From Deltaproteobacteria bacterium (GTDB lineage: Bacteria; Myxococcota; XYA12-FULL-58-9), in the NCBI GenBank assembly GCA_016218825.1, contig JACRCV010000027.1:1-64000 (forward strand): a stretch of DNA of 64,000 bases, given 5' to 3'. The notes under the pieces were generated by a model. The model ran no database searches, was not told the DNA's origin, and saw nothing but the letters and a program-made list of their open reading frames with translations. Made by a program: the position numbers and the translations under genes. Positions 3,622-51,165 of this stretch are shown here, piece after piece (within the stretch, counting starts at the first letter, position 1; each line of letters opens with the position of its first letter).

Positions 3622-4368
3622 TCAGTGCTTGATCGCGACGCCGCCCAAGACCACGCTGCCGGTGAGGACCAGGCGCTTGCCGTCGCCCTCGGTCTCCGCG
3701 AGCGGCGGGGTGCGGTCCTCGATGCCGCCCAACACCGGCGTGATCTCGGTCACCACGTGCCAATCGGCGGGGACCCGCAGCTCGATGCCGCTCATCACGC
3801 AGTCGAGGTCGAGCTTGACCTCGCCAAGGGCGAGCTTCGCCTGGCGCAGGTCGACCTCGACGCCGGCCATCACCGCCGAGATGTCGCCGCCTTTGAACTG
3901 CTGCGACTCGACCTTGATCTGCGCGCCGCCCATCGTGACCGAGCGGTGCAGCTCGTCGGTCGAGACCGATTCGAGGCGCGCCAGGTGGCGGCGCTTGTGG
4001 GTCGAGCCGTGCACCGCGACCGCGATCCCGAGCGCGATGAGGACCAGCGGCCAGAGGTGGCTGACCCCGAAGACCATCACCCCGAGGTTCTCGAGCAGCA
4101 GGCCGAGGCCGAAGAGGGCGGCGACCAGCGCCACGCCGATGCCGACCGGGCCGCGGGCGTGGAACAGGTGCGACAGGCCGAAGACCACGAGGACCAGCGG
4201 CCAGAGCTCCCAGAGGTGGACGCCGGGCGCCAGCACCCCGAGCTCTCGGAGCAAGAGCAGCGCGCCGACGCTGACCAGGAGCAGCCCGGGGAAGATCCCG
4301 GGGGGCGAGTGTCGGCGGCGGCAGTGGGGCGCGGCTGGAGTGGTCGAGCTTTGCGTCGCGGTGGTCAT
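3622..4368 (-). CDS. LiaF-like / DUF5668 membrane protein
   Basis: A 248-residue protein. Its N-terminal half has four hydrophobic helices as two repeated hairpins, with LWELWPLVLVVFG and HLWPLVLIALG as matching halves. Its C-terminal half is a beta-rich domain with 'MGGAQIKV' and 'VMAGVEVDLRQA' steps, typical of the LiaF C-terminal / cell-wall-active antibiotic response domain. In Bacillus, LiaF modulates an envelope-stress two-component system. Here no histidine kinase or regulator is adjacent, so a role in envelope stress is only inferred. The start at 4368 follows GAGGACACC; an ATG five codons upstream (4383) lacks a good site. The gene stands alone, convergent with the FHA gene. Confidence 0.8.
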   Translation of the reverse strand: MTTATQSSTTPAAPHCRRRHSPPGIFPGLLLVSVGALLLLRELGVLAPGVHLWELWPLVLVVFGLSHLFHARGPVGIGVALVAALFGLGLLLENLGVMVFGVSHLWPLVLIALGIAVAVHGSTHKRRHLARLESVSTDELHRSVTMGGAQIKVESQQFKGGDISAVMAGVEVDLRQAKLALGEVKLDLDCVMSGIELRVPADWHVVTEITPVLGGIEDRTPPLAETEGDGKRLVLTGSVVLGGVAIKH

Positions 4369-4623
4369 GATGGTGTCCTCCATGCGCCGTGTTTGGCGCT
4401 ATCTACGACGAAACCTACGCCGTGGCGAGCCGCGCCGCCGCAAGGATTCGGTGAACGGACCGCGGGCGCCGGTGAACGGCGGTGCTTGGTCGGTGGGCGC
4501 CGCCGGGGCGTGTCGCCGCCATGTGCGGCGGCGCAAGTTGTTGCGAGATTGCCAGATCTTCCCTAGAATCCCCTATGTCGCGACGACCCCCGACGGGGAC
4601 GCCGGCATTTGCTGGAGGACACG

Positions 4624-4986
4624 ATGGTAGAAGGAACGAGCGGACCAACCGCGATGGGTGGTCGAACAGTCAGCCACCGGGAAGACCCCAACTCCTTCGA
4701 CGTCAAGCCCAAGAGCGGCGGAACGCTCGTCTGCTGGCGCGACGACGCGGACGAGCCGCTTCGTTTTTGGCTCGGCCCCGCCGGCAGCAGGGACATCCGG
4801 GTCGAAGGCGAGGTCTATGACGCCGAGGGCGCCATCGCCAGGCTCGTCCACGCGTACCGCAACGCGCCGTGGGACTACGGGACGACCGACGCCGCCGACA
4901 AGTACCAGGAGGTGCTGGAGCGCGTCGCCAAGACCATGGGTCAGAGCGTCGCCCACCTGCTGGCGACGTACGCGGCCGAGCGCTAG
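4624..4986 (+). CDS. Small hypothetical protein
   Basis: A 120-residue soluble protein without recognised family. It has a central beta-rich part (LVCWRDDADEPLRFWLG) and a helical C-terminus (about residues 75-118). Start 4624 is chosen because GGAGGACACG precedes it; an in-frame ATG at 4609 lacks a site. It lies 83 bases before the cyclase-like gene on the same strand and may be cotranscribed with it. Strong GC bias at third positions supports a real gene. Confidence 0.7.
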   Translation: MVEGTSGPTAMGGRTVSHREDPNSFDVKPKSGGTLVCWRDDADEPLRFWLGPAGSRDIRVEGEVYDAEGAIARLVHAYRNAPWDYGTTDAADKYQEVLERVAKTMGQSVAHLLATYAAER

Positions 4987-5069
4987 CCGGCGCCCCTCCG
5001 GGAGCGCCACCTTCAATCTCGCCGGGCCGGGGCGCACCGGGGTGACGCCGTCGGCCACAGGGTTGCGCC

Positions 5070-5693
5070 ATGAGCACGCACGAAGACGATCTCCTCAAGG
5101 GCAGTGAAGCCCGGCTCTGGCGGCTGGTGGCCGCGCGCACCCAACCCGGCGCTGACACCAAGGCTATCGACGAGCGGATCTGGGATCTGTTCGGGGACGA
5201 CTGGGCGGTGATGTTCACCGACCTGTCGGGCTTCTCGCGGCAGGTCGCGAGGTTCGGCATCATCCACTTCCTGCAGGTGATCTACGAGCAGAAGCGCCTG
5301 CTCTTGCCGATCGTCGCCGATCATGACGGCATCCTCATCAAGACCGAGGCCGACAGCTTCTTGATCCTGTTCAAGCGGGCCAAGGGCGCTCTCGAATGCG
5401 CGGTCGTGTTGCAGCGTGCCTGTCGACAGATGAACGAGCGCCGCCTGCCGGAGGAGCAGGTCCTCCTCTGTCTCGGTATCGGCTACGGCCGGATCCTGCG
5501 CATCGGCGACGTCGACGTCTTCGGCGCCGAGGTGAACGCCGCGAGCAAGCTCGGCGAAGACACCGCCAAGGCCAACGAGATCCTCATGACCGGCGCCGCG
5601 ATGAGCGCCGCCGGCAATATCCCGGGGCTGCGCTACGAAGACCTCGGCCTCGCGGTGCCCGGCTCCGACCACAACTACCGGGTCTTGTACTAG
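5070..5693 (+). CDS. Class III nucleotidyl cyclase-like protein
   Basis: A 207-residue, single-domain protein that matches the class III adenylate/guanylate cyclase fold. Visible motifs are FTDLSGFS with metal-binding Asp51, KTEADSF with base-contacting Lys91 and second metal Asp95, and DVFGAEVNAASK with Asp149 and Asn156. The position of the transition-state Arg (usual pattern N-x-x-x-R) is Lys160. No sensor or membrane domain is fused, which is short for the family. It may be an active cyclase, a weak one, or a nucleotide-binding relic. Its TAG stop lies inside repeat copy R3. Confidence 0.82.
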   Translation: MSTHEDDLLKGSEARLWRLVAARTQPGADTKAIDERIWDLFGDDWAVMFTDLSGFSRQVARFGIIHFLQVIYEQKRLLLPIVADHDGILIKTEADSFLILFKRAKGALECAVVLQRACRQMNERRLPEEQVLLCLGIGYGRILRIGDVDVFGAEVNAASKLGEDTAKANEILMTGAAMSAAGNIPGLRYEDLGLAVPGSDHNYRVLY

Positions 5694-5760
5694 GCCGTTT
5701 TCGCCTTCATCTGATTCCCGCGCCGCTGATGCGGCGTCGCTCCCCACCCCCACCCCCTGA
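5690..5760 (+). repeat. Dispersed hairpin repeat, copy R3
   Basis: A copy of 71 bases nearly identical (68 of 71) to R2 in opposite orientation. It contains GATTCCCG, hairpin A (CGCCGC 5721-5726 with GCGGCG 5731-5736, loop TGAT) and the linker CTCCCCACCCCCACCCC. It fills the convergent gap between the cyclase-like and UbiB-like genes and supplies the TAG stop codon of the former (5691-5693). Confidence 0.8.
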
Positions 5761-5826
5761 CGGTCCAGGCCGCGTTCGACAGGTTCTCGAGTCGGGGTGT
5801 GGCGGCGCCGCCGGGGCGCGAGGCGC

Positions 5827-7164
<1,338 letters not shown>

Positions 7165-8729: not shown

Positions 8730-9560
8730 TTACTGCCCGGTGACCGAGACCGAGCCAAAGTCGAGGACGTCCACGAGCAGCAGCGCCGCCAAACCGAACA
8801 ACCCGGTGGCTCCGAACAAGGGTGCGCCGCCCACGTGAGGCTCGCGGTCGGACGTGGCGCCGGCCGAGATCAGGGCCATGCCCCCTGCCGCGAGCTCTGC
8901 CACGAACAACAGCGTCGACTCGCGGTTCTGTTCGTTGACCCAGGTGGACAGCGGCACGTCCCGTCCCGAGGTGCTCCGATCGCTCTGATAGCGCTGCCAG
9001 TCACTGTCGGTGATGAGAGCCCGAAGCATGTCTTGAGATTCCGGCATCTTGGAAGGACCAGGCGCCGGAGCCTTGACGCCGAAGAGCTGCAGGACCGCGT
9101 CTTCGACGGCCTCGTCGTAGGTGTTCTCGTCGTTGGCGGCTTTGTGTTTGGCGCTACCGAGGACTTTCTGCTGCTTGGTGTCGATGAGCTTCAGGACGAT
9201 GATGATGCTGTCGCCGAGGTGCGCGACCTGCCCGGCCAGCAGCAACTCCGCCCCGAGCGCGCCACCAATCTCCGCGGCGCACGTCACGTCGTCGCAGCCG
9301 AGCTGGTCCTTGAGGTTCTCCAGCCCCAACATCGCGTCGATATCAGATCGACCAATCACCTCGTACTTGCCGAGGCGCCGCACGGAGTTGGCGAGCAGCT
9401 CGTTCAGCGTGCCAACCGCGGCCTCGGGCAGCTCCGAGAAGCGCAGCGGCATCACCACGAGCTTCGCGGCAGCTGCCGCAGCGGCGCCTTTCGCCGGAAC
9501 TGCCGGCGGGCTCGGGTCCGAGGACAGGACGAGGGTCAGCGAGATCGCGAGAGCCACCAT
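8730..9560 (-). CDS. TolB-like N-terminal domain protein, paralogue A
   Basis: A 276-residue exported or membrane-anchored protein. It has a short hydrophobic N-terminus, then a domain starting KLVVMPLRFSELP with the run GCDDVTCAAEIGGALGAELL. A linker and two C-terminal hydrophobic helices (about 215-270) follow. The core resembles TolB/CsgG-type N-terminal domains that Myxococcota place in many sensory or envelope proteins. It is a tandem paralogue of the upstream gene (9614-10426), with the same domain order and matching helices. The two lie 53 bases apart and are probably one operon. The function is unknown. Confidence 0.8.
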   Translation of the reverse strand: MVALAISLTLVLSSDPSPPAVPAKGAAAAAAAKLVVMPLRFSELPEAAVGTLNELLANSVRRLGKYEVIGRSDIDAMLGLENLKDQLGCDDVTCAAEIGGALGAELLLAGQVAHLGDSIIIVLKLIDTKQQKVLGSAKHKAANDENTYDEAVEDAVLQLFGVKAPAPGPSKMPESQDMLRALITDSDWQRYQSDRSTSGRDVPLSTWVNEQNRESTLLFVAELAAGGMALISAGATSDREPHVGGAPLFGATGLFGLAALLLVDVLDFGSVSVTGQ

Positions 9561-9613: not shown

Positions 9614-10426
9614 TTATTCATCAGCCACCTCGACACCGCCGACGTTGACGAAGTCGATTCCGAGCAAGGTTCCAAGGGCCACCGTGGAAATCGCCAAGAC
9701 CACGCTCGGCTTCTTGTCGTCGGGGTGATTCTGACGCTCGAGGATGAAGAGGGGCACGGCGAGGGCGAATATCGTGCCCGCGACCAGCTCCCCGACGAGA
9801 AGGACTGTCGACTCGTGGTTCTTCGCGCGCACCCAATCCGACAGCGTAACGTCTCGTCCTGTCGTCGAGACGTAATACTGATATCTCGCCCAGTCTCGAT
9901 GCTTGATGCGCGCGCGCAAGGGGTCATCAGGGACCGACGCCGGCTGGGCCCCATCCGGCGCCCGGCGTCCAAAGAGCGTCTGCACCGCCTCCCCCAGCGC
10001 CCGATCGTATCCGTCCGGCGAATCGCTCGCCTTGTGCTTGACGCTGTTGAGGACCCGGCGCTCCTGGGCGTTGATCAGCTTGAGGACGATGACGAGGTTG
10101 TTGCCGAGCTTCGCGATCCGGCCCGCGACCAAGAACTCGGCTCCCAGAGCGCCGCCGATCTCAGCCGCACAGGCCACGTCGTCACACCCGGCGGACGTCG
10201 CTGCATTCTGGGCCCCGAGCAGGGCGTCGAGGTCGGACTTGCCCAACACTTGGTGCTCGCCGAGGCCTCGAATCGCCTCGGTGACCAGCTCGCCGAATAC
10301 GGCGTGCAACCCGTCTGGCAGCGAAGAAAGCTGCAGCGGCATCACGACGAGCTTGGGCTTGGCGACCTCGGCGTCGGCAGCGCCGGCGCCGAGCAGCACC
10401 CCAAGGATGACGACGATGCTCTGCAT
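9614..10426 (-). CDS. TolB-like N-terminal domain protein, paralogue B
   Basis: A 270-residue tandem paralogue of the downstream gene. It begins with a signal-like MQSIVVILGVLLGAGAADA, then KPKLVVMPLQLSSLP and the shared block GCDDVACAAEIGGALGAEF. A 'STTGRDVTLSDWV' segment is also shared with its partner, and two hydrophobic helices end the protein (about 205-260). An in-frame start 35 codons upstream (10531) would add an Arg-rich, non-signal extension, so 10426 is preferred. It diverges from the DUF2203 gene across a 134-base gap that should hold both promoters. Confidence 0.8.
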   Translation of the reverse strand: MQSIVVILGVLLGAGAADAEVAKPKLVVMPLQLSSLPDGLHAVFGELVTEAIRGLGEHQVLGKSDLDALLGAQNAATSAGCDDVACAAEIGGALGAEFLVAGRIAKLGNNLVIVLKLINAQERRVLNSVKHKASDSPDGYDRALGEAVQTLFGRRAPDGAQPASVPDDPLRARIKHRDWARYQYYVSTTGRDVTLSDWVRAKNHESTVLLVGELVAGTIFALAVPLFILERQNHPDDKKPSVVLAISTVALGTLLGIDFVNVGGVEVADE

Positions 10427-10560
10427 CACGATAGGAATATTTCGTGCCCCGGAGAGGGAGGCAAGAAGAAAGGTGGCGGAGGCCGGCGGCGCGGTGCGGA
10501 GCCGTCGGCAATTGACAGCCCGACAACCCATGTCCAGCTCAACGCGGAGGAGGACAGGCT

Positions 10561-13539: not shown

Positions 13540-13665
13540 TCACAACGAGGGCTCTCGTCCGAAGTTCTCGAACAGGGCTTCTTGGCAATCCCAGCGTAGG
13601 TCGCCGACGAACAGCTCCATGCAGGCGCGTTCGAGGGCGTTCTCGGTGAAGGCTTGCGTGCTCAT
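13540..13665 (-). pseudogene. Truncated HsdR N-terminus (type I restriction subunit remnant)
   Basis: A 41-codon frame starts MSTQAFTENALERACMELF and includes DLRWDC. This resembles the N-terminus of type I restriction endonuclease subunit R, where 'F(T/S)E..LE.A...L...GW' opens the protein. It stops after 41 codons, whereas HsdR is normally about 1000 residues. Its ATG overlaps the TGA of the upstream fic gene (ATGA), as in intact type I loci where fic-like genes sit beside hsdR. It is therefore probably the stub left after loss of most of a restriction system. Confidence 0.5.
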
Positions 13666-14666
13666 TTGAGGACGTACCTGCCGTTCTTCTGGGTGCCGAT
13701 GCGCTTGATGAGCCCGGCCTTGATGAGGGGCTTCAACGTGTCGAGGGCGCCTTGCTTGGACACTCCCAGGGCATCCCAAATCTGGCGCGGGGTCATGGAG
13801 CCGTTGGCCTTGAGGAGAAACAGCACTTGCTCTTGCTTGGGTCGGAGCACGAGCCTGGTCTTGCCCGTGGTCGCCGAGAATTGCTGCACGCGGCGCCAGA
13901 CCCGCTCCAGGGTCTGGTGCAGGCCTTCGGCGGAGTATTCCAGGAAGCCCGTCAGATCCTCGCCGGCCTCACGAACGGCCTGCAGCTCGCGGTAGTAGCG
14001 CGGTCGGTCCTCCCAGTAGTGCTCGTCCACCGAGAAGACGTGGTGGGAGTCGAAGCCCCGGCGATACAGCTCCCAGATGGCCAGGGCACGACCCGTGCGG
14101 CCGTTGCCATCGGCGAAGGGATGGATGGCCTCGAAGCGGTAGTGCAGGATTCCTTGCGAGAGCACGGGCGAAAGCTCGGCGCTCCGGGTGTTCCACCAGT
14201 CGAGCAGCTCGGTCATGAGGCCCTTCACCTCGCGGGTCTTGGGCGGCAAGTACTGGCCGACGCGGACCTCAACGTTGCGGTACACGCCGGCCTCACCCTG
14301 GTCCATCACGTCGCCCGCGATGAGCAGGTGCAGGCGGCACACCTCGGCGTGGGTGACGGCCTTCTTGGTCGCGAACTTCTCGATGTACCTGAGGCCCGCA
14401 AAGTAGCCGATTACCTCGCGTTGGGGCTTGGATGGCATCGGCAGGAGCGTGCCTTGCTCCTCGACGGCCCGGACCTGCTCCAGCGTCAGCGGGTTGCCTT
14501 CGATGGCGGTCGAGGAGTGGGCGTTGCGGGCGCGGCTGTCCTTTTGGAGGGCTGGAATCCAGGCCACCTCCACGGCTGCGGCCTGGATGCGCTCGCGCAC
14601 GGCGGCGATGGCCTCGACGAGCCCGAGGAGCTTGGGCGTGATGGTGAACTTCGGCTCGTAGCCCAT
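13662..14666 (-). CDS. Fic family protein (predicted AMP transferase) with winged helix
   Basis: A 334-residue class II Fic protein. An N-terminal inhibitory helix carries STAIEGN (Ser52, Glu56). The catalytic motif HPFADGNGRTGR begins at His182. A C-terminal winged-helix domain (about 255-334, with MTPRQIWDALGVSKQG) could bind DNA. Fic enzymes with this motif transfer AMP to a hydroxyl side chain; the inhibitory Glu keeps them off. Start 14666 (MGYEPKF) has TGGAG five bases ahead; a GTG three codons upstream is possible. The gene stop overlaps the HsdR stub ATG. It is likely a survivor of a type I restriction island. Confidence 0.9.
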   Translation of the reverse strand: MGYEPKFTITPKLLGLVEAIAAVRERIQAAAVEVAWIPALQKDSRARNAHSSTAIEGNPLTLEQVRAVEEQGTLLPMPSKPQREVIGYFAGLRYIEKFATKKAVTHAEVCRLHLLIAGDVMDQGEAGVYRNVEVRVGQYLPPKTREVKGLMTELLDWWNTRSAELSPVLSQGILHYRFEAIHPFADGNGRTGRALAIWELYRRGFDSHHVFSVDEHYWEDRPRYYRELQAVREAGEDLTGFLEYSAEGLHQTLERVWRRVQQFSATTGKTRLVLRPKQEQVLFLLKANGSMTPRQIWDALGVSKQGALDTLKPLIKAGLIKRIGTQKNGRYVLK

Positions 14667-14685
14667 GAGCTCCACGCTATTCGTG

Positions 14686-14715
14686 GGTCAAGTATGGGTC
14701 AAGAGATTGGTCAAG
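14686..14715 (-). promoter_or_regulatory. Three TTGACC direct repeats upstream of fic
   Basis: Three copies of CTTGACC, read on the fic strand, lie at 14709-14715, 14697-14703 and 14686-14692, spaced 12 and 11 bases and about 20 bases before the fic start. One-helical-turn spacing suits an operator for a regulator that binds side by side, perhaps the Fic winged helix itself. One copy could also serve as a -35 box. This is a pattern observation only. Confidence 0.4.
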
Positions 14716-14725
14716 CAGTTGCGGC

Positions 14726-14899
14726 GACCTGGGCGTCGGCCTGGGACACGTCCAGTTCACCCGAGACGAGCTCGGCCAAGACGCTCGGCCGTGGCGGGTG
14801 CGCACTGTCGTCAGCTTCGATGACGCGGCACGGGCTCGGGCGTTCGAGGCCTATCTCAAGTCGGGGTCGGGTAGGGCGTTTGCCAAGAAACGGCTGTAG
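14726..14899 (+). pseudogene. GIY-YIG nuclease C-terminal remnant
   Basis: A frame of 57 codons ends in TAG (14897-14899). It encodes PWRVRTVVSFDDAARARAFE and then YLKSGSGRAFAKKRL, the conserved C-terminal end of small stand-alone GIY-YIG endonucleases. The GIY and YIG strands and catalytic Arg/Glu that should come first are missing, and no start codon or ribosome site is present. It faces opposite to fic and ssrA. It is interpreted as a relic of a mobile or defence gene beside the tmRNA gene. Confidence 0.7.
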
Positions 14900-14930
14900 G
14901 GCCCGCCTACGCCCCGACTTCGCGGCACAC

Positions 14931-14996
14931 AGCTTCGTCGCGGCTTCGGCGTGGCAGCCTTCGCGCCGGACATTGCTGCACGGAGCTTCGTCGCGG
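14931..14996 (+). repeat. Short direct repeat between nuclease remnant and ssrA
   Basis: AGCTTCGTCGCGG occurs at 14931-14943 and again at 14984-14996. The 141 bases between the nuclease remnant and the tmRNA gene hold this repeat and the hairpin at 15020-15034, and no reading frame that looks coding. They may be scars of insertion at the ssrA 3' end. Confidence 0.45.
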
Positions 14997-15019
14997 AAGC
15001 CCGGGCGTGCCGAGCCGAA

Positions 15020-15034
15020 GCGCCCGACGGGCGC
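15020..15034 (-). terminator. Hairpin just downstream of ssrA
   Basis: GCGCCC pairs with GGGCGC around a three-base loop, beginning six bases after the encoded CCA of tmRNA. There is no T run, so it may be a processing or Rho-assisted end rather than a classical intrinsic terminator. Confidence 0.35.
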
Positions 15035-15040
15035 GAAGGC

Positions 15041-15405
<365 letters not shown>

Positions 15406-35027: not shown

Positions 35028-36233
35028 ATGCGACCGAAGATGGCGCTGTTGTTCGTGGTGGGCTTGGGCGCGGCGGGCTCGTGCTCGTCGGAGCCGGTGT
35101 GTGGCAACGACGTCGTCGAGGACGGCGAGCGTTGTGACGGCAACTGCCCGACAGCGTGCGTCGCCGCCGCGGCTTGCATGACCGCGGCGGTGGTCGGCGA
35201 CAGCGCCGGCTGCAGCGCCCACTGTGAGGAGACGCCGCTCGCCACCTGCGTCGACGGCGACGGCTGCTGTCCCGCCGGGTGCGGGGCCACGGGTGACACC
35301 GACTGCGTGGTCTGCAGCGCCGGGCCCCCGGCCGGCGTCCGAGTCAGCCTGCCCGCCGACGACGCCCCCCATTTCTCCGACATCGAGTGGTGGTACTGGA
35401 CCGGCCACTTGCAGACCGAGACCGGCCGGCAGTTCGGTTTCCAGCTGGTGTACTTCTTGGCGCAGTACGGGGGGTTCTGGGCGCACGCGGTGCACCAGGC
35501 GTTGACCGACGTGCAGGCTGGCGCCTTCCATTTCGCAGACGACGCTGGCGCGAATCGGCCGCAGACGGTGAGCACCGGCTACTTGTTGGCGATGCCGCTG
35601 GCTTCGGCGCAGGGCGGCGACGGCTTCGACGTGTTGCACAGCTCGGTGGACGGGCTGGTGCTGGATCTGGAGCTCGGCGCGGTCAAGGCGCCGGTGTACC
35701 AGTACGGCGTCGGCTACGTCGACTACCCGTTCGGCGGCAATACCTACTACTACTCGCGCGAGCGGATGGACGCGACCGGCACGCTGACGATCGGACAGGA
35801 CAAGCTGAAGGTCACCGGCGATGCGTGGTTCGACCACCAATGGGGCCAACTGTCGGACGCGAGGGCGATGGGCTGGGACTGGTTCGCGCTCAGCCTCGAC
35901 GACGACCGGGAGATCATGGTGTTCATCATCCGCTCGACCCCGGTGATGGTCGGGGGCTCGTACACCGACGCCGGCTGCCAGACCCAACCGATCCAGGAGG
36001 GTGACGTGTCGATCACCGCGACCGGCGCGTGGGTGAGCCCGCACACCGGGCGGACCTACCCGTCCGGATGGGACATCCAGGTCCTCGGAATGCAGTTTCA
36101 CGTCGAGCCGCTCCTCGACGATCAAGAGCTCAACGTGAGCGTGCCGCCGCCCGGCGTGGCCTACTGGGAGGGCGCGTGCGCCGTCACCGGCGACGCCACC
36201 GGCAAGGCCTACGTCGAGCTGACCGGCTACTGA
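35028..36233 (+). CDS. AttH/CrtC-like predicted secreted lipoprotein
   Basis: A 401-residue protein. A lipoprotein-type signal ends GAAGSC (Cys19). Residues 24-95 are a Cys-rich segment (CGNDVVEDGERCDGNC and similar) common as a surface module in myxobacteria. Residues 100-400 match the lipocalin-like AttH/CrtC fold, with DIEWWYWTGHLQTETG at the front, AWFDHQWGQL in the middle and GWDWFALSLDD after it. Relatives include carotenoid 1,2-hydratase and predicted secreted hydrolases, so the substrate is probably lipophilic. GGAGG lies five bases before the ATG at 35028. Confidence 0.85.
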   Translation: MRPKMALLFVVGLGAAGSCSSEPVCGNDVVEDGERCDGNCPTACVAAAACMTAAVVGDSAGCSAHCEETPLATCVDGDGCCPAGCGATGDTDCVVCSAGPPAGVRVSLPADDAPHFSDIEWWYWTGHLQTETGRQFGFQLVYFLAQYGGFWAHAVHQALTDVQAGAFHFADDAGANRPQTVSTGYLLAMPLASAQGGDGFDVLHSSVDGLVLDLELGAVKAPVYQYGVGYVDYPFGGNTYYYSRERMDATGTLTIGQDKLKVTGDAWFDHQWGQLSDARAMGWDWFALSLDDDREIMVFIIRSTPVMVGGSYTDAGCQTQPIQEGDVSITATGAWVSPHTGRTYPSGWDIQVLGMQFHVEPLLDDQELNVSVPPPGVAYWEGACAVTGDATGKAYVELTGY

Positions 36234-36407
36234 GGACCCGACGGTCTCGGCGTCGGGCCGTGACCGAGGCCTCGAAGACAGGCCGATCTACGGCTAAGCT
36301 TTGACGCGCAGCTCAGCAATCACGGGTCTTCTTGCGGGCGCGGGCGCGGCCATGATCGGCCGCCCCCTTCTTCGAGAGCTCCGGGCCTCCGACTGAGAGG
36401 TGAAGGT

Positions 36408-39400
36408 ATGTGGTGTGCGTTGATGCGGCGACAGCTCGCGATGCAGTCATCCCTGCTCATGAGGGCGGCCCTGTTCGGTTCGTTGCTGCTGGCGTCCGGG
36501 TGCAGCGACGTCTTCGCGTCGTTGTTCGCGCGCACGGTGTCGTTCGCGGCCGGCGCCCAGAGCGTCGACGAGGCGGCCGGGGGCGCCGAGGTCGTCGTCC
36601 TGCTCAGTGACCCGGCCGCGGCCGAGATGTCGGCGCCGCTCGTGGTCTCGGGGACCGCGACCCCGGGCAGCGACTTCGACGCGGTCGGGACCGCGGTGTT
36701 CTTCCACGCCGGTGAGGTGCGGGCGGTGCTTCGCCTGGCGCTCGTCGACGACACGGTCAGCGAGTCGGACGAGACCGTGGTGCTGACGCTCGGCGACGAC
36801 ACCGGCGCCGACGTTCATCCCGGCTCCCTCGCCATCCACACCCTGACGATTCGCAACGACGACGCGGTGCCGACGCTCGCGGCCTTCGGGGTGACGGTGT
36901 CGGAGACCGACGGCAGCGCGGTGCTGCCGGTGCGGCTCTCGGCCGCGGCCGGCCAACCGGTGACCGTGGGCTACACCGCGGTGTCCGGGACCGCGGTGGC
37001 CGGCGCCGACTTCGCGCAGACCAGCGGGACCTTGATGTTCGCGTCCGGGCTGACCGAGACCAGCGTCACGCTCCAGATCGCGAACGACAACGAGGTCGAA
37101 GGCACCGAGAGCTTCGTGGTCCGCCTGGAGGGCGCCGTCGGCGCGAGCGTCGGGGTGCCGGAGGCGACGATCAACATCCTCGACGACGACACCGTGCCGG
37201 CGCTGACCGCCGCCGCCGTCGTCGCCGGCGAGAACCAGGGTCGAGCCACCTTCACCTTGTCGTTGTCGGCGGCGACCGGGGCGTCGGTGACCGTGTCGTG
37301 GTCCACCGCGGACCAGACCGCGATCGCCGGCCTCGACTACACCGCCGGCGCCGGCAGCGTGACCTTCGATCCCGGGGTGACCGAACAGACGTTCGTCGTA
37401 GAGCTCGCGGACGACAGCCTCGTCGAGGGCAGCGAGAGCTTCGCGGTGGCGTTGTTCAACCCGCGGCACGCGACGTTGGCGACTGCGCAGGTGCCGGCGA
37501 CCATCCTCGACGACGACCTCGTGCCCGTGGTGTCGGTGGCCGATGCGCAGGTGTCTGAGCTGGGCGGCAGCGTGGCGGTGATCGTGAGCCTGTCGGCGGC
37601 GACCGGGCTGCCGGTGACCGTCGCGGTCGCGACCGCGGACGGCAGCGCCCAGGCGGGCGCCGACTACGTCGCCTACGCCGGGACGATCACCTTCGAGCCC
37701 GGGGCGACCAGCAAGGTCACGACGCTGGCTATCGTCGACGACGCCGTCCTCGAAGGCAGCGAGACCTTCTTCGTCGATCTGAGCGCCCCCACGCACGCGG
37801 TGTTGGGCACGGCGCATGCCGCGGTGACGATCTTCGACGACGAGGTCGTGCCGGCGGTGTCGATTGTCGACGCGCAGACGCCGGAGAACGGCGGCGCGAT
37901 GACCTTCACCCTGACCGTCGACCAGCCGTCGGGGGCCCTGGTGAGCGTCTCTGCGACCACCGCCGACCAGACCGCGTTTGCGGGGACCGACTATCAAGCG
38001 ACCGCGACCTCGGTGCTCTTCGCCCCGGGCACGGTTGTCCAGACGCTGAGCGTGCCCCTCTTCGACGACGGCGTCGTCACCGGGAGTCAGAGCTTCACGG
38101 TGAGCATCGCCAACCCGGTGCACGCGACGCTCGGCCGGAGCACGGCGGTCGGCACGATCTTGGACGACGAGGTCGTGCCGGTGTTGAGCATCGCCGACGC
38201 CACCTTGCCCGAGAGCGCGCTGATCCTCGATCTGGTGGTGACGCTCGACGCCCCGTCCGGCAGCCCGGTGAGCGTGCAGTACGCGACCAGCGACTTCACC
38301 GCGCAGGGCGGCGACGACTATCTGTCGACCGCGGGGACCCTGAGCTTCGCGCCCGGGGTCACGGCGCTCGCGATCCCGGTGCCGCTCCTCGATGACGCCG
38401 TCCTCGAGGGCACCGAGACGTTCTTCGTCGACGTCAGCGCGCCGCTGCATGCGATCCTGGGCCGGGCGCACGCGGTCGCCACCGTGCTCGACGACGAGGT
38501 GGTGCCGGATCTCAGCATCGCCGCCGCGCAGGTCCCCGAGGTCGCCTTGCTCATGGCGTTCACCGTCACACTGAGCGCCGCCACCGGGATGCCGGTCACC
38601 GCGACCTACGGCACCACGAGCGGCACCGCCGCCGCCGACGTCGATTACACCACGACCTCCGGGCCCCTGACCTTTGCGGCCGGCGAGCTCACGAAGACCG
38701 TGACGGTGCCGATCCTCGACGACAGCGACCCCGAAGGGAGCGAGACCTTCTCGGTGACCCTCGCCGATGTTTCGGGCGCCAACCTCACGGGTGCGGCCGC
38801 GACCGGCACGATCCTCGACGACGACTTCTTGCCGGCGCTGAGCATCGGCGACGCCACCGGCATCGAGAACGCCGGGTTCATGGACTTCACGGTCGCGCTC
38901 GCCGCGGCGAGCGGCGCCGTGGTCACGGTGGATTGGGCGACCGGCGGCGGCAGCGCTATCGCCGGCGCCGACTACCAGGCGACGAACGGCGTCGTGACCT
39001 TCGACCCCGGCGTCACGACCCAGACGGCGCAGGTCACGCTCTACGACAACGGCGTCGCGACCGGGTCGCGGACCTTCTTCGTGACGCTCACGAACCCGGT
39101 GAACGCCGCGCTCGGGCGGACGCCGGCGCTCGGCACCATTCTGGACGACGACGTCATCCCCGCGGTCAGCATCGCCGACGCCTCGGCGTCCGAGCTCGCG
39201 GCGACGCTGGACGTCGCGGTGACCTTGTCAGCGCCGACCGGGTCGTCGGTGAGCGTGGCCTACACCACCGTCGACGGCAGCGCCCTGCAACCGGACGACT
39301 ATCTGCAGACCGCCGGAACCTTGACCTTCGCGCCCGGGATCACGAGCGCCGTCGTCAGCGTGCCGCTCGTCGATGACATTCTGACCCAGGGGACGCTGAG

Positions 39401-42400
39401 CTTCGACGTCCAGCTGTCATCCCCGTCGCAGGCGACCTTGGGCCGGACCCCCGCCGTCGGCACGATCTTCGACGACGAGGTGATCCCCGATCTCGGCATC
39501 GCCGACGCGCAGGGCATCGAGAGCGCCGGCGGCATGGACTACGTCGTGACCTTGAGCGCCGCCACCGGGGCGCCGGTCAGCTTGACCTTCGCCACCACCG
39601 GCGGCAGCGCCGCCGCCGACGTCGATTACACCACGACCTCCGGGCCCCTGACCTTTGCGGCCGGCGAGCTCACGAAGACCGTGACGGTGCCGATCCTCGA
39701 CGACAGCGACCCCGAAGGGAGCGAGACCTTCTCGGTGACCGTGGCGAACGTATCGGGCGCGAACGTGGTGCGCCCGACCGCGACCGGCACCATCCTCGAC
39801 GACGACTTCTTGCCGGCGCTGAGCATCGGCGACGCCTCGGCGTCGGAGGGGAGCGCCCGGATCACCTTCACGGTGTCGCTGTCGGACCTGAGCGGGCGGG
39901 TGACCAGCGTCGATTTCAGCACCATCGGCGGCACCGCGGCGCCGGGTACCGACTACGTCGACCAGAGCGGCACGCTTTCGATCGCGGCCGGCGCGGCCTC
40001 GACGACGGTGTCGTTTGATCTGATCGCCAACGCGAAGGACGAGCCGGATCGGAGCTTCACCGTCGGCCTCGCGAATCCGACGGCCGCCACGATCACCGAC
40101 GGCGCCGGCGCCGGCACCGTCCTCGACGACGACGATCCGCCGAGCGTCGAGCTCGAAAGCGTCGCGCAGAGCAACGCCGAGAGCGTCACCACCGTGACCT
40201 TGACCCTGCAGCTGTCGGCGGCGTCGGGTCTCCTGGTCTCCGCGCCCTTCACCGTCAACGCGGCGTCGACCGCGCTCGACCCCGACGACTACAGCATCGT
40301 GGCGAGCCCGGCGCTGATCGCGGCCGGCGACACGACCCAGACGATCACCATCACCGTGGTGGACGACGCGCTCGCCGAGCCGGCGGAGACTGTCGTGGTC
40401 GACCTCGGCGCTCCGAGCAACGCGACCCTGGGCGCCAACCAGACGCACACGGTGACGATCACCGACAACGACGTGCTGCCGACGCTCGAGTTTGCCGCCG
40501 CGGCGCAGAGCAACCTCGAGAACGTGACCAGCGTGACGATCACCGTGCGGCTGTCGGCGATCGCCGGGCTCCCGGTCACCGTGCCCTTCGGCGTCAACCC
40601 GGCGTCGACCGCGGCCGACCCCGCCGACTACGGCATCGCGGCGAGCCCGGTCGTCATCGGCGCCGGGAGCCTGACCCAGACCATCGCCGTCACCGTGGTG
40701 GGCGACGGCAGCGACGAGGCCTCCGAGGCCATCGTCGTGGATCTCGGCGCGCCGACCAACGCCACCCTCGGCGCGCTGCAGACGCACACCGTGACCATCC
40801 TCGACGACGACCCGTGTGACGGTCCGAAGATCAACGCCGCCGAGTACCTCGACACCGACGGCAACGGTCGCCTCGACCACGTCCGTCTGGTCTTCGACGA
40901 GACCGTGGACGACAGCACCTTCGACGCCTTCAACGCTGCGGGGACGCCGAACGACCAGCTTCACGACGTCACGACGGTGTGGGGCGTCGCCGGCTACAGC
41001 GGTGTTCGTCTCGACACCCGCGACGTCATCGGCGGCTACGACCCCGCCGACACCGGCATCGACGACGACGAGCTCTGGCTGGCGTTCGACGAGCTCAGCG
41101 TCGGCTTCGATACCGGCAGAGCGCCGGAGCTCACCGCGACTCAGAGCGCCTTGAGGGACGTGGACACCGGCACCTGCTACGTGCAGACCAGCGTCGCCAA
41201 CTGCCTGGTGGCGGCCGCCGCCAACATCGTCGCCGCCGACGTCGTCGAGGCGGATCGGGCGGCGCCGATCATCGCCAAGGCGAGCGGCGACACCGGCTCG
41301 ACCACGTTGAACCTCTTCTTCAGCGAGCCGGTCGACGCCAGCGGCGTGCTCGGCTGTCTCGGGGTGCTCGCCGGCGGTGACTTCTTCTACGACGACCAGA
41401 GCGGCTCGGACGCGCACGCCATCCTGAGCATCGGCGCCGACGCCGACGCCTGTGACGATCGGCGCGCGAGCGCGACCTTGGACGTGGCGCTCGCGGTCGC
41501 CGACATGGACACCGACCAGGTGCGCGCCGCTGCCGGTCTCGCGATCTTCGACGCCAGCAACAACGCCATGGGGCTCGCGACCCGCTTGGTCCAGATCGCC
41601 GACGCGCCCTCCGTCTTCTCGGTGGGCTCCGCCGGCTCCCAGAAGATCCAGATCCGCTTCTCGGAGCCGGTGGACCTGACGGCGGCGATGGCGCTCGGCA
41701 ACTACACTCTGAGCGAGTCGCCGGTGGAGGCCGGCTGCAGCGGCTCGGGCTCGGACAGCGTCGCGCTCAGCGGCGCGGTGCTGGCGCTCTCGGCTACCAC
41801 CTTCGAGCTGTCGACCGACAACCCGCAGTGCTCGAGCACCACCTATCAGCTCGCGGCGTCCGCGGCGATCACCGACCAAGACGAAGGGCTGGCGCTCGTC
41901 GACCCGAAGTTCGGCACCTTCATCGGCGACGCGCAGCTCTACATCACGAACGTCACCTGCATCGACACCACCAACGTCGCGGTCACCTTCAGCAAGAACG
42001 TGCAGGCCGGGTCGGGCGTCGGCGGCGCCGAGAACACCGCCCGCTACCAGCTCTCGGGGCCGGTGGCGCTCGGCGCCATCAGCACCGCGGTGTTGATAGC
42101 AGCGAACCAGGTGAAGCTGACCCACACGGCGCCGCAAACCGGCGGCACGTTCACGCTCGTCGGCTCGAACGGCACCAATGGCGACGGCTTCGACGACGCC
42201 GGGGTCGGCGCCATCCAGGTCAGCGGGACGGCGGAGACGCTGCAGGCGCCGCCCGGCGATCGGCTGCTCTGGTCCGGCTGTGGCACCACCGTCGACACCT
42301 TCGCGCAGGGGCCGGTCATCACCAATCCGTTCGCCGACGGCTCGTCGGTGGGCTTCCTGGCGTCCTACGCCGGCCAGGTCTACATCGGCCCGAACAACCT

Positions 42401-43799
42401 GGGCTACAGCGCCGCGCGCTTCAACCCGGACGGCAGCAACCCGCAGACCTTGAGCTTCTCGTTTGTGCGCGACGGCACCGCCACGCCGTGCAACGGCGGC
42501 GGGGCTTGCACCCACCAGAACACCGGCGCCCAGCCCTACCGGACCCTCGGCCACACCGGCTGCACCAACAACAACACCACGCTCGCGACCGGTTGCGGCC
42601 CCGACAACGAGAACGGCCGTGGTCTGTTCTCGACCGGCGTCCTGCGCGGCATGGAGCGGCTGTTCATCGGCGGCGCCCGCAGCGCCGCGGAGTTCGACTA
42701 CGTCTACTATACGGCGGACACCGACGCGCAGCTCGACTTCAACTACGTCGACTTCGACAACATGACCGGCTCGAACTCCAACGGCTTGTCGAGCACCGCG
42801 GTGTTCAACGACCGCCTCTTCATCGGCATGGCGCGGCAGCCGAACAATCGGCCGGACTTCTCCAAGGTGAGCTTCAACGTCGCGGACACCGGTGCCTGCG
42901 ATCCGGCCACGAGCTGCAACGCCACCGAGTCGGTGGCGGCGCACAGCGTGCGGCTGGACATCCACAACATGCCGTACTTCGGGGCGATGGCGCCGGTCGC
43001 GAATCGCAACTGGGCGTACTATGTCGGCGTGGACTCTCTGACGGTGTTCAACGGCCTGATCTACGCCGCCGCCGGCGGTCACGGTCGGGTGGATCACAAC
43101 GGCGGTCTGATCCGCTCCAACAGCGCCGATCCCGCGGCCTGCACCGGATCGGGGACCTGTGCCGATTGGACCGAGATCGCGCCGCGCGCCGACGCCGCCT
43201 GGCACAACGGCAGCGGGCGCTTCTCCCTCGAGCTCAACAAGACCTACGATCTCATCCCCGGCGACAAGGCCTTCGCCCAGTTCGCCGAGTACAACGGGCG
43301 CCTCTTCGTGACCCGGACGACCTGCACGGTGCAGGGCGCGAACGGCGCCGACGCCGCGGTCCACACCGTCGCCGGCTGCAACGACGGCACGGTGACGAAC
43401 CGCCAGGCGCAGCTCTGGAAGTGCGATCCGGCGCTCAACGCCCCGGCGACGTCCTGCGAGGCCGCGGACTGGGGCGTCGTCGCCGACGGCGGCACCGGCC
43501 TCACCAACTTCGCCGACGCCAACAACCGCACGCTGTCGATGGCGGTCGCGAACGGCAGCTACCTCTACGTCGGCTTCGACAACACCAGCGGCGTCGAGAT
43601 CTGGCGCACCAACACCGCGAACCCCGGCGCCGCCACCGACGTCTGGACCCAGGTGGGCGCCGACGGCCTCGGCGACGCCGCCAACATCCAGCAGATCTAC
43701 TCGGCGATCTCGATCCAGCTCGGTTCCCGCTACTACCTGTACGTCAGCGCCGGCAAGGGTGGGGTGCCGGTGCGGGTCTTCCGCCAGGTGAACGATTAG
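36408..43799 (+). CDS. Giant Calx-beta repeat surface lipoprotein
   Basis: A 2463-residue predicted lipoprotein (signal ending LLLASGC, Cys32). Residues about 36-1470 contain thirteen Calx-beta-like repeats, each closing with a DDD or DDE turn (NILDDDTVPAL, TILDDEVVPVL and similar). Their acidic loops should bind calcium. Residues about 1470-1960 hold Ig-like (SbsA-type) units with FSEPVD and TFSKNVQ starts. The last about 500 residues are a separate beta-rich, Asn/Gly-rich domain with several Cys. Such proteins act in adhesion or as surface fibres. Two repeats share a 133-base identical stretch. The ATG at 36408 has GAGAGGTGAAGG ahead. It is followed by the OmpA-type gene on the same strand. 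Confidence 0.9.
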   Translation: MWCALMRRQLAMQSSLLMRAALFGSLLLASGCSDVFASLFARTVSFAAGAQSVDEAAGGAEVVVLLSDPAAAEMSAPLVVSGTATPGSDFDAVGTAVFFHAGEVRAVLRLALVDDTVSESDETVVLTLGDDTGADVHPGSLAIHTLTIRNDDAVPTLAAFGVTVSETDGSAVLPVRLSAAAGQPVTVGYTAVSGTAVAGADFAQTSGTLMFASGLTETSVTLQIANDNEVEGTESFVVRLEGAVGASVGVPEATINILDDDTVPALTAAAVVAGENQGRATFTLSLSAATGASVTVSWSTADQTAIAGLDYTAGAGSVTFDPGVTEQTFVVELADDSLVEGSESFAVALFNPRHATLATAQVPATILDDDLVPVVSVADAQVSELGGSVAVIVSLSAATGLPVTVAVATADGSAQAGADYVAYAGTITFEPGATSKVTTLAIVDDAVLEGSETFFVDLSAPTHAVLGTAHAAVTIFDDEVVPAVSIVDAQTPENGGAMTFTLTVDQPSGALVSVSATTADQTAFAGTDYQATATSVLFAPGTVVQTLSVPLFDDGVVTGSQSFTVSIANPVHATLGRSTAVGTILDDEVVPVLSIADATLPESALILDLVVTLDAPSGSPVSVQYATSDFTAQGGDDYLSTAGTLSFAPGVTALAIPVPLLDDAVLEGTETFFVDVSAPLHAILGRAHAVATVLDDEVVPDLSIAAAQVPEVALLMAFTVTLSAATGMPVTATYGTTSGTAAADVDYTTTSGPLTFAAGELTKTVTVPILDDSDPEGSETFSVTLADVSGANLTGAAATGTILDDDFLPALSIGDATGIENAGFMDFTVALAAASGAVVTVDWATGGGSAIAGADYQATNGVVTFDPGVTTQTAQVTLYDNGVATGSRTFFVTLTNPVNAALGRTPALGTILDDDVIPAVSIADASASELAATLDVAVTLSAPTGSSVSVAYTTVDGSALQPDDYLQTAGTLTFAPGITSAVVSVPLVDDILTQGTLSFDVQLSSPSQATLGRTPAVGTIFDDEVIPDLGIADAQGIESAGGMDYVVTLSAATGAPVSLTFATTGGSAAADVDYTTTSGPLTFAAGELTKTVTVPILDDSDPEGSETFSVTVANVSGANVVRPTATGTILDDDFLPALSIGDASASEGSARITFTVSLSDLSGRVTSVDFSTIGGTAAPGTDYVDQSGTLSIAAGAASTTVSFDLIANAKDEPDRSFTVGLANPTAATITDGAGAGTVLDDDDPPSVELESVAQSNAESVTTVTLTLQLSAASGLLVSAPFTVNAASTALDPDDYSIVASPALIAAGDTTQTITITVVDDALAEPAETVVVDLGAPSNATLGANQTHTVTITDNDVLPTLEFAAAAQSNLENVTSVTITVRLSAIAGLPVTVPFGVNPASTAADPADYGIAASPVVIGAGSLTQTIAVTVVGDGSDEASEAIVVDLGAPTNATLGALQTHTVTILDDDPCDGPKINAAEYLDTDGNGRLDHVRLVFDETVDDSTFDAFNAAGTPNDQLHDVTTVWGVAGYSGVRLDTRDVIGGYDPADTGIDDDELWLAFDELSVGFDTGRAPELTATQSALRDVDTGTCYVQTSVANCLVAAAANIVAADVVEADRAAPIIAKASGDTGSTTLNLFFSEPVDASGVLGCLGVLAGGDFFYDDQSGSDAHAILSIGADADACDDRRASATLDVALAVADMDTDQVRAAAGLAIFDASNNAMGLATRLVQIADAPSVFSVGSAGSQKIQIRFSEPVDLTAAMALGNYTLSESPVEAGCSGSGSDSVALSGAVLALSATTFELSTDNPQCSSTTYQLAASAAITDQDEGLALVDPKFGTFIGDAQLYITNVTCIDTTNVAVTFSKNVQAGSGVGGAENTARYQLSGPVALGAISTAVLIAANQVKLTHTAPQTGGTFTLVGSNGTNGDGFDDAGVGAIQVSGTAETLQAPPGDRLLWSGCGTTVDTFAQGPVITNPFADGSSVGFLASYAGQVYIGPNNLGYSAARFNPDGSNPQTLSFSFVRDGTATPCNGGGACTHQNTGAQPYRTLGHTGCTNNNTTLATGCGPDNENGRGLFSTGVLRGMERLFIGGARSAAEFDYVYYTADTDAQLDFNYVDFDNMTGSNSNGLSSTAVFNDRLFIGMARQPNNRPDFSKVSFNVADTGACDPATSCNATESVAAHSVRLDIHNMPYFGAMAPVANRNWAYYVGVDSLTVFNGLIYAAAGGHGRVDHNGGLIRSNSADPAACTGSGTCADWTEIAPRADAAWHNGSGRFSLELNKTYDLIPGDKAFAQFAEYNGRLFVTRTTCTVQGANGADAAVHTVAGCNDGTVTNRQAQLWKCDPALNAPATSCEAADWGVVADGGTGLTNFADANNRTLSMAVANGSYLYVGFDNTSGVEIWRTNTANPGAATDVWTQVGADGLGDAANIQQIYSAISIQLGSRYYLYVSAGKGGVPVRVFRQVND
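38627..38759 (+). repeat. 133-bp perfect internal repeat, copy 1 (Calx-beta)
   Basis: Bases 38627-38759 are identical to 39608-39740, in frame and 981 bases apart (327 codons, three Calx-beta units). Other units of the same protein are far less alike at DNA level. Confidence 0.95.
39608..39740 (+). repeat. 133-bp perfect internal repeat, copy 2 (Calx-beta)
   Basis: Second copy of the 133-base direct repeat. After about 40 diverged bases the similarity resumes through GACGACGACTTCTTGCCGG, so the recombined segment is probably larger than the perfect match. Confidence 0.95.
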
Positions 43800-43864
43800 T
43801 GCTGCCGCCGGCCCGAGATCGCTAGGATTTCGTTACGAACGTTTCGGCGATAGGAGAGTCATCG

Positions 43865-45676
<1,812 letters not shown>

Positions 45677-45701
45677 GCGACAGCCCCTCGCGTCAACGAC
45701 G

Positions 45702-46928
45702 ATGCGCGCCCCGGACCGATTCGAGCAATATCACCGCTACAAGACGGCGGTGGCCGGAGAGCCGCTGCCGCTGGCGCTCATCGACCTCGACTACGTGGAT
45801 CACAACCTCGGCGTCATCCTCGAGGCCGCCCGCGTCGGCCACAAGGCGCTGCGTCTGGCCACCAAGTCGGTGCGGGCGCCGGCGGTGATCGACCACCTGG
45901 TCGAGGCGAGCCGGGGGGCGATCGCGGGGGTGATGGCGTACGCGGTCACCGAGGCGGCGCTGCTCGTCGAGGGGGGCCACACCGACGTGCTCGTCGCCTA
46001 CCCCTCGGTGCAGGCCTCGGACGTCGAGCTGCTCGTGGCGCTGAACGCCGGCGGGCGCGCCAAGGTCGGCATCGTCGTCGACTGTGCGGAGCACCTCGAC
46101 TGTCTCGAGGCCGTGGCGGCAGCGAAGAACGTCGTCGTCCCGGTGATCATCGAGGTCGATCTGTCGCTGCGCTTGTTCGGCGGGCTGCTGCACCTCGGCG
46201 CCTACCGCAGCCCGCTGCGCAGCGCCGCCGGCGTCTTGGCGCTGGCCCGCGAGGTCCGGACGCGCTCGCACCTGCAGCTCGACGGGGTGATGGGCTACGA
46301 GGCGCAGATGGCCGGGGTGGGGGAGAACAACCCGTTCACGCGGGCGTTGAACCCGGTCAAGCGCCTGGTGAAGCGCTTGAGCCTGCCGATGATCCGCCGA
46401 CGGCGTCACGAGGTCCGGGCGACGCTGGTGGCCGACGGCTTCGCGCTGCGGGTCGTGAACGGCGGCGGCACCGGCAGCCTGACGACGACGCGGCACGAAG
46501 ACGCGGTCACCGAGGTCACCGTGGGCTCGGGGTTCCTCTGCAGTCATCTGTTCGACTACTACGCCAGCCTGCGGGGGCTGTTGCCCGCGGCGTGGTTCGC
46601 GCTCCAGGTGGTGCGGGTGTCCGATCCGGGGTTCGTCACCTGTCACGGCGGCGGCCTGATCGCGTCCGGTGAGCCGGGTCGGGATCGGCTGCCGCTGCCG
46701 CACCTGCCGCCCGGGCTGCGCCTGACGAGGTTCGAGGGCGCCGGCGAGGTGCAGACGCCGCTGTGCGGCCGGGGCGCGTACGAGCTCCGGCCCGGCGATC
46801 CGGTCTTCTTCCGCCACGCCAAGGCCGGCGAGCTCGCGGAGCACTTCACCGAGTATCTGCTGGTGCGCGGCGCCAAGGTGGTCGGGCGGGCGCCCACCTA
46901 CCGCGGCCTCGGCAAGGACTTTCTCTAA
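45702..46928 (+). CDS. PLP-dependent D-amino-acid deaminase / aldolase-like protein
   Basis: A 408-residue fold-type III PLP protein of the D-threonine aldolase / D-serine dehydratase-like / D-amino-acid deaminase group. The N-terminal alanine-racemase-like barrel has LALIDLDYVDHN at 24-35 and the PLP Lys55 in LRLATKSVR. The phosphate-binding VNGGGTGS block follows at about 252-259. The C-terminal DSD1-like domain has TCHGGG and FFRHAKAGELAEHF, with His residues positioned for a metal. The substrate cannot be assigned. It lies nine bases before a dipeptidase homologue, an arrangement fitting release and breakdown of D-amino acids. Confidence 0.85.
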   Translation: MRAPDRFEQYHRYKTAVAGEPLPLALIDLDYVDHNLGVILEAARVGHKALRLATKSVRAPAVIDHLVEASRGAIAGVMAYAVTEAALLVEGGHTDVLVAYPSVQASDVELLVALNAGGRAKVGIVVDCAEHLDCLEAVAAAKNVVVPVIIEVDLSLRLFGGLLHLGAYRSPLRSAAGVLALAREVRTRSHLQLDGVMGYEAQMAGVGENNPFTRALNPVKRLVKRLSLPMIRRRRHEVRATLVADGFALRVVNGGGTGSLTTTRHEDAVTEVTVGSGFLCSHLFDYYASLRGLLPAAWFALQVVRVSDPGFVTCHGGGLIASGEPGRDRLPLPHLPPGLRLTRFEGAGEVQTPLCGRGAYELRPGDPVFFRHAKAGELAEHFTEYLLVRGAKVVGRAPTYRGLGKDFL

Positions 46929-46937
46929 GGGGGCCCC

Positions 46938-48002: not shown

Positions 48003-48013
48003 AGGGCTGCGCC

Positions 48014-48922: not shown

Positions 48923-49018
48923 GGCAGCGCGCCTACCGTGACATACCTCGCCCGAGATTGAAACTCGGGTCGGCATCGCCTAATAATGAGAAAGTCGCCT
49001 CGGTGCGGGTAGGTGCCC

Positions 49019-49930: not shown

Positions 49931-50010
49931 ACCAAGTCAATCTCGACCGATGCGGCCTCCGGTGTCTGCGAACCTGGACAGTGGGGACCCAGATTTTCCA
50001 GGTCTTTTCC

Positions 50011-50026
50011 CGGCCTGGGGCTTGCA
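50011..50026 (+). promoter_or_regulatory. Possible sigma-54 promoter before the lipoprotein pair
   Basis: CGGCCT, five bases, then TTGCA has the GG-N10-GC spacing of sigma-54 sites and a perfect -12 half, but the -24 half (TGGCAC) matches poorly. It lies 40 bases before the start at 50066. Weak, pattern-only support. Confidence 0.25.
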
Positions 50027-51159: not shown

Positions 51160-51165
51160 TCGCTA

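What the first reader, a model, noticed from the sequence alone, without database searches (positions are those of the whole stretch)
13540..15040. Decayed defence island at the 3' end of ssrA
Next to the tmRNA 3' end lie a GIY-YIG nuclease remnant, a full Fic gene with class II inhibitory motif, and a 41-codon stub resembling the HsdR N-terminus that overlaps fic by ATGA. fic genes beside hsdR are known in type I restriction loci, and ssrA 3' ends are classical integration sites. The picture is a restriction island that lost its main genes but kept Fic.
Basis: partly seen in the sequence, partly recalled or inferred. Interest (0 to 1): 0.6.

Follow-up and report, generated by a model that had tools for sequence, protein, structure and literature searches.

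The report
Restriction-locus remnant keeping a self-regulated Fic
Next to a tmRNA gene sits the stump of a restriction defence locus whose only intact gene, fic, belongs to a family that carries the same three-repeat DNA site just before the gene in two bacterial phyla, probably the switch by which the protein controls itself.

Summary
Intact hsdS-fic-hsdR operons exist on plasmids, so this is an hsdS'-fic-'hsdR remnant. fic is absent from ssrA in the two nearest genomes. Integration at ssrA is circumstantial: 3 of 5 relatives carry an integrase or AbiE genes there, one between 22-bp repeats of the ssrA end; this window shows no second att site and no integrase.

Not foreseen: fic has an operator-like site, three direct repeats TTGACYNAT spaced 12 and 11 bp, 3-17 bp before the start codon in 18 of 19 family members from two phyla, in otherwise unalignable DNA. 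In that wider family fic mostly stands alone. Most likely mechanism: the Fic winged helix binds the repeats and represses its own gene. Binding is inferred, not shown.

The parts
15041..15405 (-). ssrA (tmRNA gene); its 3' end is at 15041
   Evidence: Rfam RF00023, 168.3 bits, full model 1-374
14786..14899 (+). C-terminal fragment of a GIY-YIG nuclease gene (37 codons and stop)
   Evidence: 22/36 identical to the C-terminus of the intact protein in L290, which is Pfam GIY-YIG 5.8e-15; library profiles do not see the fragment itself
14711..14782 (-). last 23 codons and stop of an hsdS gene
   Evidence: aligns end to end with HsdS C-termini of L127 and L138; score 64 against at most 43 in 5000 shuffles and 39 for the best other of 997 window ORF ends
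14683..14714 (-). operator-like site: three direct repeats TTGACYNAT, spaced 12 and 11 bp, ending 16 bp before the fic ATG; the hsdS stop codon lies inside the first repeat
   Evidence: 1 mismatch of 26 to the family pattern, 0 of 1000 shuffles as good; found in 18 of 19 members 3-17 bp before the start
13662..14666 (-). fic, 334 codons from ATG (a GTG at 14675 would give 337): class II Fic domain and C-terminal winged helix
13540..13665 (-). hsdR stub: first 41 codons, ATG overlapping the fic stop (ATGA)
   Evidence: custom HsdR N-terminal profile, 0 of 20000 shuffles as high; not seen by Pfam, NCBIfam or PADLOC

Best explanation
A type I restriction locus of the order hsdS-fic-hsdR once lay next to the ssrA 3' end. 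Deletions removed hsdM, all but 23 codons of hsdS and all but 41 codons of hsdR, and left fic whole together with the repeats before it. fic encodes a class II Fic enzyme, probably an AMP-transferase held off by its own SSTAIEGN helix. Its C-terminal winged helix most likely binds the three TTGACYNAT repeats just before the start codon and represses its own transcription, so that the gene works as a stand-alone, self-regulated toxin-like unit. Shown: the fragments and their order, the intact fic frame, the conservation of the repeats. Inferred: past integration at ssrA, AMP transfer, binding to the repeats, repression, target and trigger.
For: HsdR stub, HsdS tail and GIY-YIG tail each pass controls; hsdS and hsdR pieces flank fic in the order and strand of intact hsdS-fic-hsdR operons on plasmids, and in L285 fic and hsdR overlap by 4 bp as here (GTGA). 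ssrA 3' flanks in 3 of 5 relatives carry an integrase or AbiE genes, one between 22-bp copies of the ssrA end. fic is intact and dN is well below dS against G002 (0.087 and 0.53, NG86). The repeats are conserved in 18 of 19 members of two phyla, 78% against 24-27% identity in flanking blocks, and 12 of 16 genome-wide sites sit at a fic or a broken fic. CccR, a class II Fic with a C-terminal HTH, represses its own gene (PMC9755527, passages).
Against: No second att copy and no integrase in the window. No intact hsdS-fic-hsdR locus with a close Fic was found: those on plasmids are 29-33% identical, and none of 18 neighbourhoods of closer Fics shows hsdR or hsdS by tblastn (tblastn is weak for hsdS). 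G516 has only a poor form of the repeats, and 4 of 16 sites have no fic that I could see. CccR's site is an inverted, not a direct repeat. No binding or expression data exist for this family.
Confidence: 0.65

Rival explanations
1. A mobile, self-contained repeats-plus-fic cassette inserted into an hsdS-hsdR locus, intact or already broken; fic was never part of the restriction system, and ssrA is unrelated.
For: The family is mostly solitary; the DNA shared with G002 is exactly repeats plus fic; HsdR directly follows HsdS without fic in some genomes, e.g. G031.
Against: The stub's ATG overlaps the fic stop and the hsdS stop lies inside the first repeat, which looks like an operon rather than an insertion; other Fics do sit in such operons.
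Confidence: 0.25
2. The repeats are a promoter or an RNA element bound by another regulator, not by Fic.
For: TTGAC resembles a -35 box; four sites have no fic that I could see; Fic binding is untested.
Against: No sigma-70 type site is found at fic; three copies at 12 and 11 bp are not a promoter layout; the sites track fic and broken fic genes across genomes; Fic clades with other winged helices show other repeats in the same place.
Confidence: 0.2
3. The hsdS, hsdR and GIY-YIG pieces are chance resemblances and fic is simply a solitary gene beside ssrA.
For: No library profile matches the pieces; they are only 23, 41 and 37 codons long; the stub's margin is small with the 10-sequence profile.
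Against: Each piece passes shuffles or ORF controls, in the right strand and order.
Confidence: 0.05

Closest known systems
CccR of Yersinia pseudotuberculosis (PDB 7XUX; PMC9755527, passages read)
   Same: Class II Fic with C-terminal HTH; fold match at rank 4; the paper reports that it represses its own gene through the HTH domain.
   Different: CccR binds an inverted repeat with a 26-bp spacer; here three direct repeats at 12 and 11 bp. CccR is a T6SS effector; nothing here suggests secretion (not tested).
CbFic2 of Coxiella burnetii (PDB 8CIL; PMC10628234, passages read) and SoFic (3EQX, 3ZCN)
   Same: Class II Fic plus winged helix; fold matches. DNA binding stimulates CbFic2.
   Different: The CbFic2 work used random DNA, with no operator; for SoFic that paper says DNA binding had not been shown. 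Sequence identity about 20%.
hsdM-hsdS-fic-hsdR type I loci on plasmids (L079, L080, L081, L285)
   Same: Same gene order around fic; in L285 fic and hsdR overlap by 4 bp.
   Different: Here hsdM is gone and hsdS and hsdR are stumps; the Fic is only 29-33% identical; their fic genes lack the TTGACYNAT repeats in the stretches I read.
AbiE island at ssrA in relative G004 (L038)
   Same: Defence-type genes directly at the ssrA 3' end in a related genome.
   Different: It has a 22-bp repeat of the ssrA end on both sides; the window has not.

Membership tests
[quoted passage not shown]
   HPFADGNGRTGR; Pfam Fic 1.7e-18; motif as worded in PMC9755527
Class II Fic protein | Inhibitory motif (S/T)xxxE(G/N) N-terminal to the Fic motif | tested here: met
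   SSTAIEGN, invariant in 15 members
Class II Fic protein | AMP transfer to a target protein | not testable with these tools
   needs an assay
Self-regulated Fic-HTH protein (CccR-like) | C-terminal DNA-binding helix-turn-helix domain | tested here: met
   HTH_24 4.2e-7, MarR_2 1.1e-6; model
Self-regulated Fic-HTH protein (CccR-like) | Conserved repeat site at its own promoter | tested here: met
   18 of 19 members close to the start codon; direct, not inverted, repeats
Self-regulated Fic-HTH protein (CccR-like) | Binding to that site and repression | not testable with these tools
   needs gel shift and reporter assays
Type I restriction-modification locus | Intact hsdM, hsdS and hsdR | tested here: not met
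   only a 23-codon hsdS tail and a 41-codon hsdR head remain; so it is a remnant, not a working system
Type I restriction-modification locus | Gene order hsdS-fic-hsdR as in fic-bearing loci | tested here: met
   order and strand as in L079, L080, L081, L285
ssrA-integrated genomic island | Direct repeat of the ssrA 3' end beyond the island | tested here: not met
   one copy only in the window at up to 3 mismatches of 23
ssrA-integrated genomic island | Integrase gene | tested here: not met
   no similarity to G001's integrase or G004's integrase-like piece in the window
ssrA-integrated genomic island | Absent from ssrA in close relatives | tested here: met
   G001 lacks fic, G002 has it on another contig

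The most novel reading that the evidence does not exclude
Class II Fic proteins with a winged helix are one-protein switches that read their own, clade-specific direct-repeat operator: TTGACYNAT three times at 12 and 11 bp in this clade across two phyla, TTGACATAA in a 34%-identical relative, TTATCCA repeats in a 30%-identical clade. Such cassettes ride in restriction loci and outlive them, and operator DNA may also set the state of the enzyme.
Probability: 0.5. Interest if true: 0.65.

Novelty: new variant of a known kind. Interest (0 to 1): 0.5.

Why it matters
PMC9755527 (passage) says that class II proteins are 80% of all Fic proteins and that nearly nothing is known of their function and control. 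A precise, conserved DNA site before a whole Fic family makes that control directly testable and gives a way to find such genes and their broken copies by operator. The remnant also shows a toxin-like gene persisting after the restriction genes around it were lost.

Tried and rejected
Library profiles for stub and fragments: no match. tblastn of the stub: 6 weak plasmid hits, of which the 2 opened gave no support (one record has no annotated genes there, the other a hypothetical protein); only itself in 146 genomes; PDB nothing meaningful. First pairwise test of the stub against related HsdRs was not significant (best 47; best shuffle 50), which is why the profile was built. tblastn of the GIY-YIG tail in plasmids and in 290 held loci: none but itself; solved by a degenerate DNA pattern. 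A looser three-repeat pattern in 189 genomes of the window's phylum gave 4 sites in 2 genomes, simple repeats and a membrane-protein gene, none at fic; its YY position excludes the window's own first repeat, so it says nothing about this family. The same pattern in viral contigs: 25 stretches; of the 20 whose downstream side was read, none has a fic and several are simple repeats. Fic in viral contigs and phages: only distant. Sigma-70 scan: nothing at fic. Repeats in other Fic loci: of 54 upstream regions 7 beat all 60 shuffles, some of them GC-rich and coding-like, so only L011, L012 and L267 are taken as leads. An hsdS-like tail in L255 (by eye) was not tested and is not counted.

Rows dropped before a count: HsdR N-termini, 19 of 30 loci were extracted and 8 of those 19 used, the rest being wrong-strand pieces and one different N-terminus; HsdS C-termini, 15 of 35 chosen by eye; G371 (34% identical) left out; G197 (near-copy of G196) and G516 (poor fit) left out.

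Papers: searches (listings only); passages of PMC9755527 and PMC10628234. None of those listings showed a Fic gene with a direct-repeat operator or an hsdS-fic-hsdR remnant, but only open-licence papers are held.

Full report
What is there. The tmRNA gene is at 15041-15405 on the minus strand. Downstream from its 3' end come 141 bp without a recognised feature; a 37-codon GIY-YIG C-terminus on the plus strand (14786-14899); after 3 bp the last 23 codons of hsdS on the minus strand (14711-14782); a triple repeat (14683-14714); fic (ATG at 14666, stop at 13662-13664); and a 41-codon stub (13540-13665) whose ATG overlaps the fic stop as ATGA.

The stub is an HsdR N-terminus. Pfam, NCBIfam and PADLOC do not see it, nor does tblastn in plasmids or related genomes, and a first pairwise test was not significant. 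I then collected HsdR N-termini: 8 from annotated plasmid genes and 8 from related genomes. The profile of these 16 ranks the stub first among 20899 sequences (stub, 20000 shuffles, 898 window ORFs), 22.8 bits, E 1.1e-4; by its coordinates the second is the ORF that contains the stub. With 10 of the 16 it is still first, at 16.3 bits against 15.0 for the best shuffle.

The hsdS tail was not in the finding. VLAELVSGELDVSQADAQVAATA-stop aligns end to end with HsdS C-termini of two related genomes (LLPKLLSGEIRVREAEAQLAATA in L138); score 64, best of 5000 shuffles 43, best other of 997 window ORF ends 39. With the stub it brackets fic in the order hsdS-fic-hsdR. That order is intact on plasmids of Azotobacter, Vibrio, Shewanella and Salinivibrio, with Fics 29-33% identical to this one. 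Of the 11 Fic regions opened on plasmids these are 4; one more has a nuclease gene between fic and hsdR, one has hsdS before and an AbiEi gene after fic, and five have neither.

ssrA as an insertion point. I read the ssrA 3' flank in five relatives. G004 has AbiE-type genes and an integrase-like C-terminus between two copies of the ssrA end, 22 bp; Pfam supports AbiEii (1.6e-24) but not the integrase piece. G002 has an AbiEii fragment (1.8e-7), G001 a tyrosine integrase (3.3e-21). G006 has no mobile gene by eye; in G008 some genes look phage-like, by eye only. In the window there is no second copy of the ssrA end and no similarity to those integrases. The spot is a busy one in this group; past integration of this remnant is inferred.

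fic is not syntenic. Of 58 genomes searched, the own one included, only G002 has a close copy (86%), on another contig than its ssrA; the same-genus G001 has no match. The DNA shared with G002 ends at the repeats on one side and at the fic stop on the other. Between the two copies dN is 0.087 and dS 0.53 (NG86); YN00 gives dS 2.0, so only the direction is safe: the protein has been under selection, at least for part of that time.

The family. Four more copies came from genome contigs, Verrucomicrobiota by their record titles, 59-64% identical. A profile of six found 16 of 387 genomes of that phylum at E at most 1e-60. The handles drawn for the window's phylum and for that one do not overlap, so the window lies in another phylum. 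In 18 neighbourhoods other than the window (19 records were searched; G371 is too distant to count) no hsdR or hsdS was found by tblastn, which is weak for hsdS; one has an hsdM-like gene 5 kb away. L042 has a methylase-like ORF near fic, by eye.

The operator-like site. Before fic in 19 members (all those at 58% identity or more) I looked for TTGACYNATNNC-TTGACYNATNC-TTGACYNAT in 150 bp. Mismatches of 26: 0 in 8 members, 1 in 3, 2-4 in 7, and 7 in one (G516). Each of the 19 beats 1000 shuffles of its own region; 18 end 3-17 bp before the start codon, G516 at 42. Over 17 members the site is 78% identical in pairs, the three 32-bp blocks upstream 24-27%, the first 32 coding bases 67%. A scan of 387 genomes allowing 2 mismatches gave 16 sites in 15 genomes and none for the reversed pattern. 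Nine are those of fic genes found before; three more precede a fic cut by the contig end (G447) or one reduced to its two ends by an internal deletion (G511, G431; read by eye); four have no fic that I could see: one before a DNA methyltransferase-like gene (G365), one at a contig end (G418), one without a clear gene (G492) and a second site in G226. Seven of the 16 fic-bearing genomes do not appear, their sites being weaker or not found.

How it most likely works. The protein has the Fic motif, the class II inhibitory motif and a winged helix. An AlphaFold model (mean pLDDT 78, poor at residues 33-59) matches Fic structures, among them CccR (7xux) and CbFic2 (8cil), at TM about 0.5-0.6. CccR is reported to repress its own gene through its HTH domain, CbFic2 to change activity on DNA. 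By analogy this Fic should bind its three repeats, which end a few bases before the start codon, and shut its own gene off; copies 12 and 11 bp apart would put three subunits near one face of the helix. All of this paragraph beyond the calls is inference. Other Fic clades show other repeats in the same place (TTATCCA in L011 and L012, TTGACATAA in L267), as expected if each winged helix reads its own site; these are leads, seen in 2 loci and 1 locus.

Verdict. The finding is real and its reading right in the main: an hsdS'-fic-'hsdR remnant beside ssrA. That alone is an ordinary kind of thing. The conserved triple repeat of this Fic family is the part that a specialist may find new: a variant of a known kind, a Fic-HTH protein that controls itself.

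Noticed in passing
L038 (relative G004) 3908-6114: A 2.1-kb AbiE-type pair with an integrase-like C-terminus between two copies of the last 22 bp of ssrA: a small, apparently intact defence island.
   Followed up: partly
L279 (G511) and L283 (G431): The triple repeat is followed by fic genes reduced to their two ends by an internal deletion (by eye).
   Followed up: partly
L277 (G365), after the repeat: A near-match of the triple repeat (2 mismatches) stands before a DNA methyltransferase-like ORF instead of fic.
   Followed up: no
L011 and L012, within 100 bp before fic: Another Fic clade (about 30% identical) has TTATCCA direct repeats followed by the inverted form ATGGATAA.
   Followed up: partly
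L081 6949-6973: A palindrome GTTATCCGGAAATTCCGGATAAC lies between hsdS and fic in the Shewanella plasmid locus.
   Followed up: no
window 15276-15311, minus strand: The tmRNA tag reads ANDNVELALAA by my own reading of the sequence; ARAGORN's tag and boundaries look wrong against Rfam.
   Followed up: no
window 8730-9560 and 9614-10531, minus strand: Two neighbouring ORFs that look like paralogues; only one gives a weak Pfam hit, DUF2380-like.
   Followed up: no
G000:C62, about 36000-52000: The window's own genome holds further HsdR and HsdS matches on another contig, so type I loci still exist in this organism.
   Followed up: no
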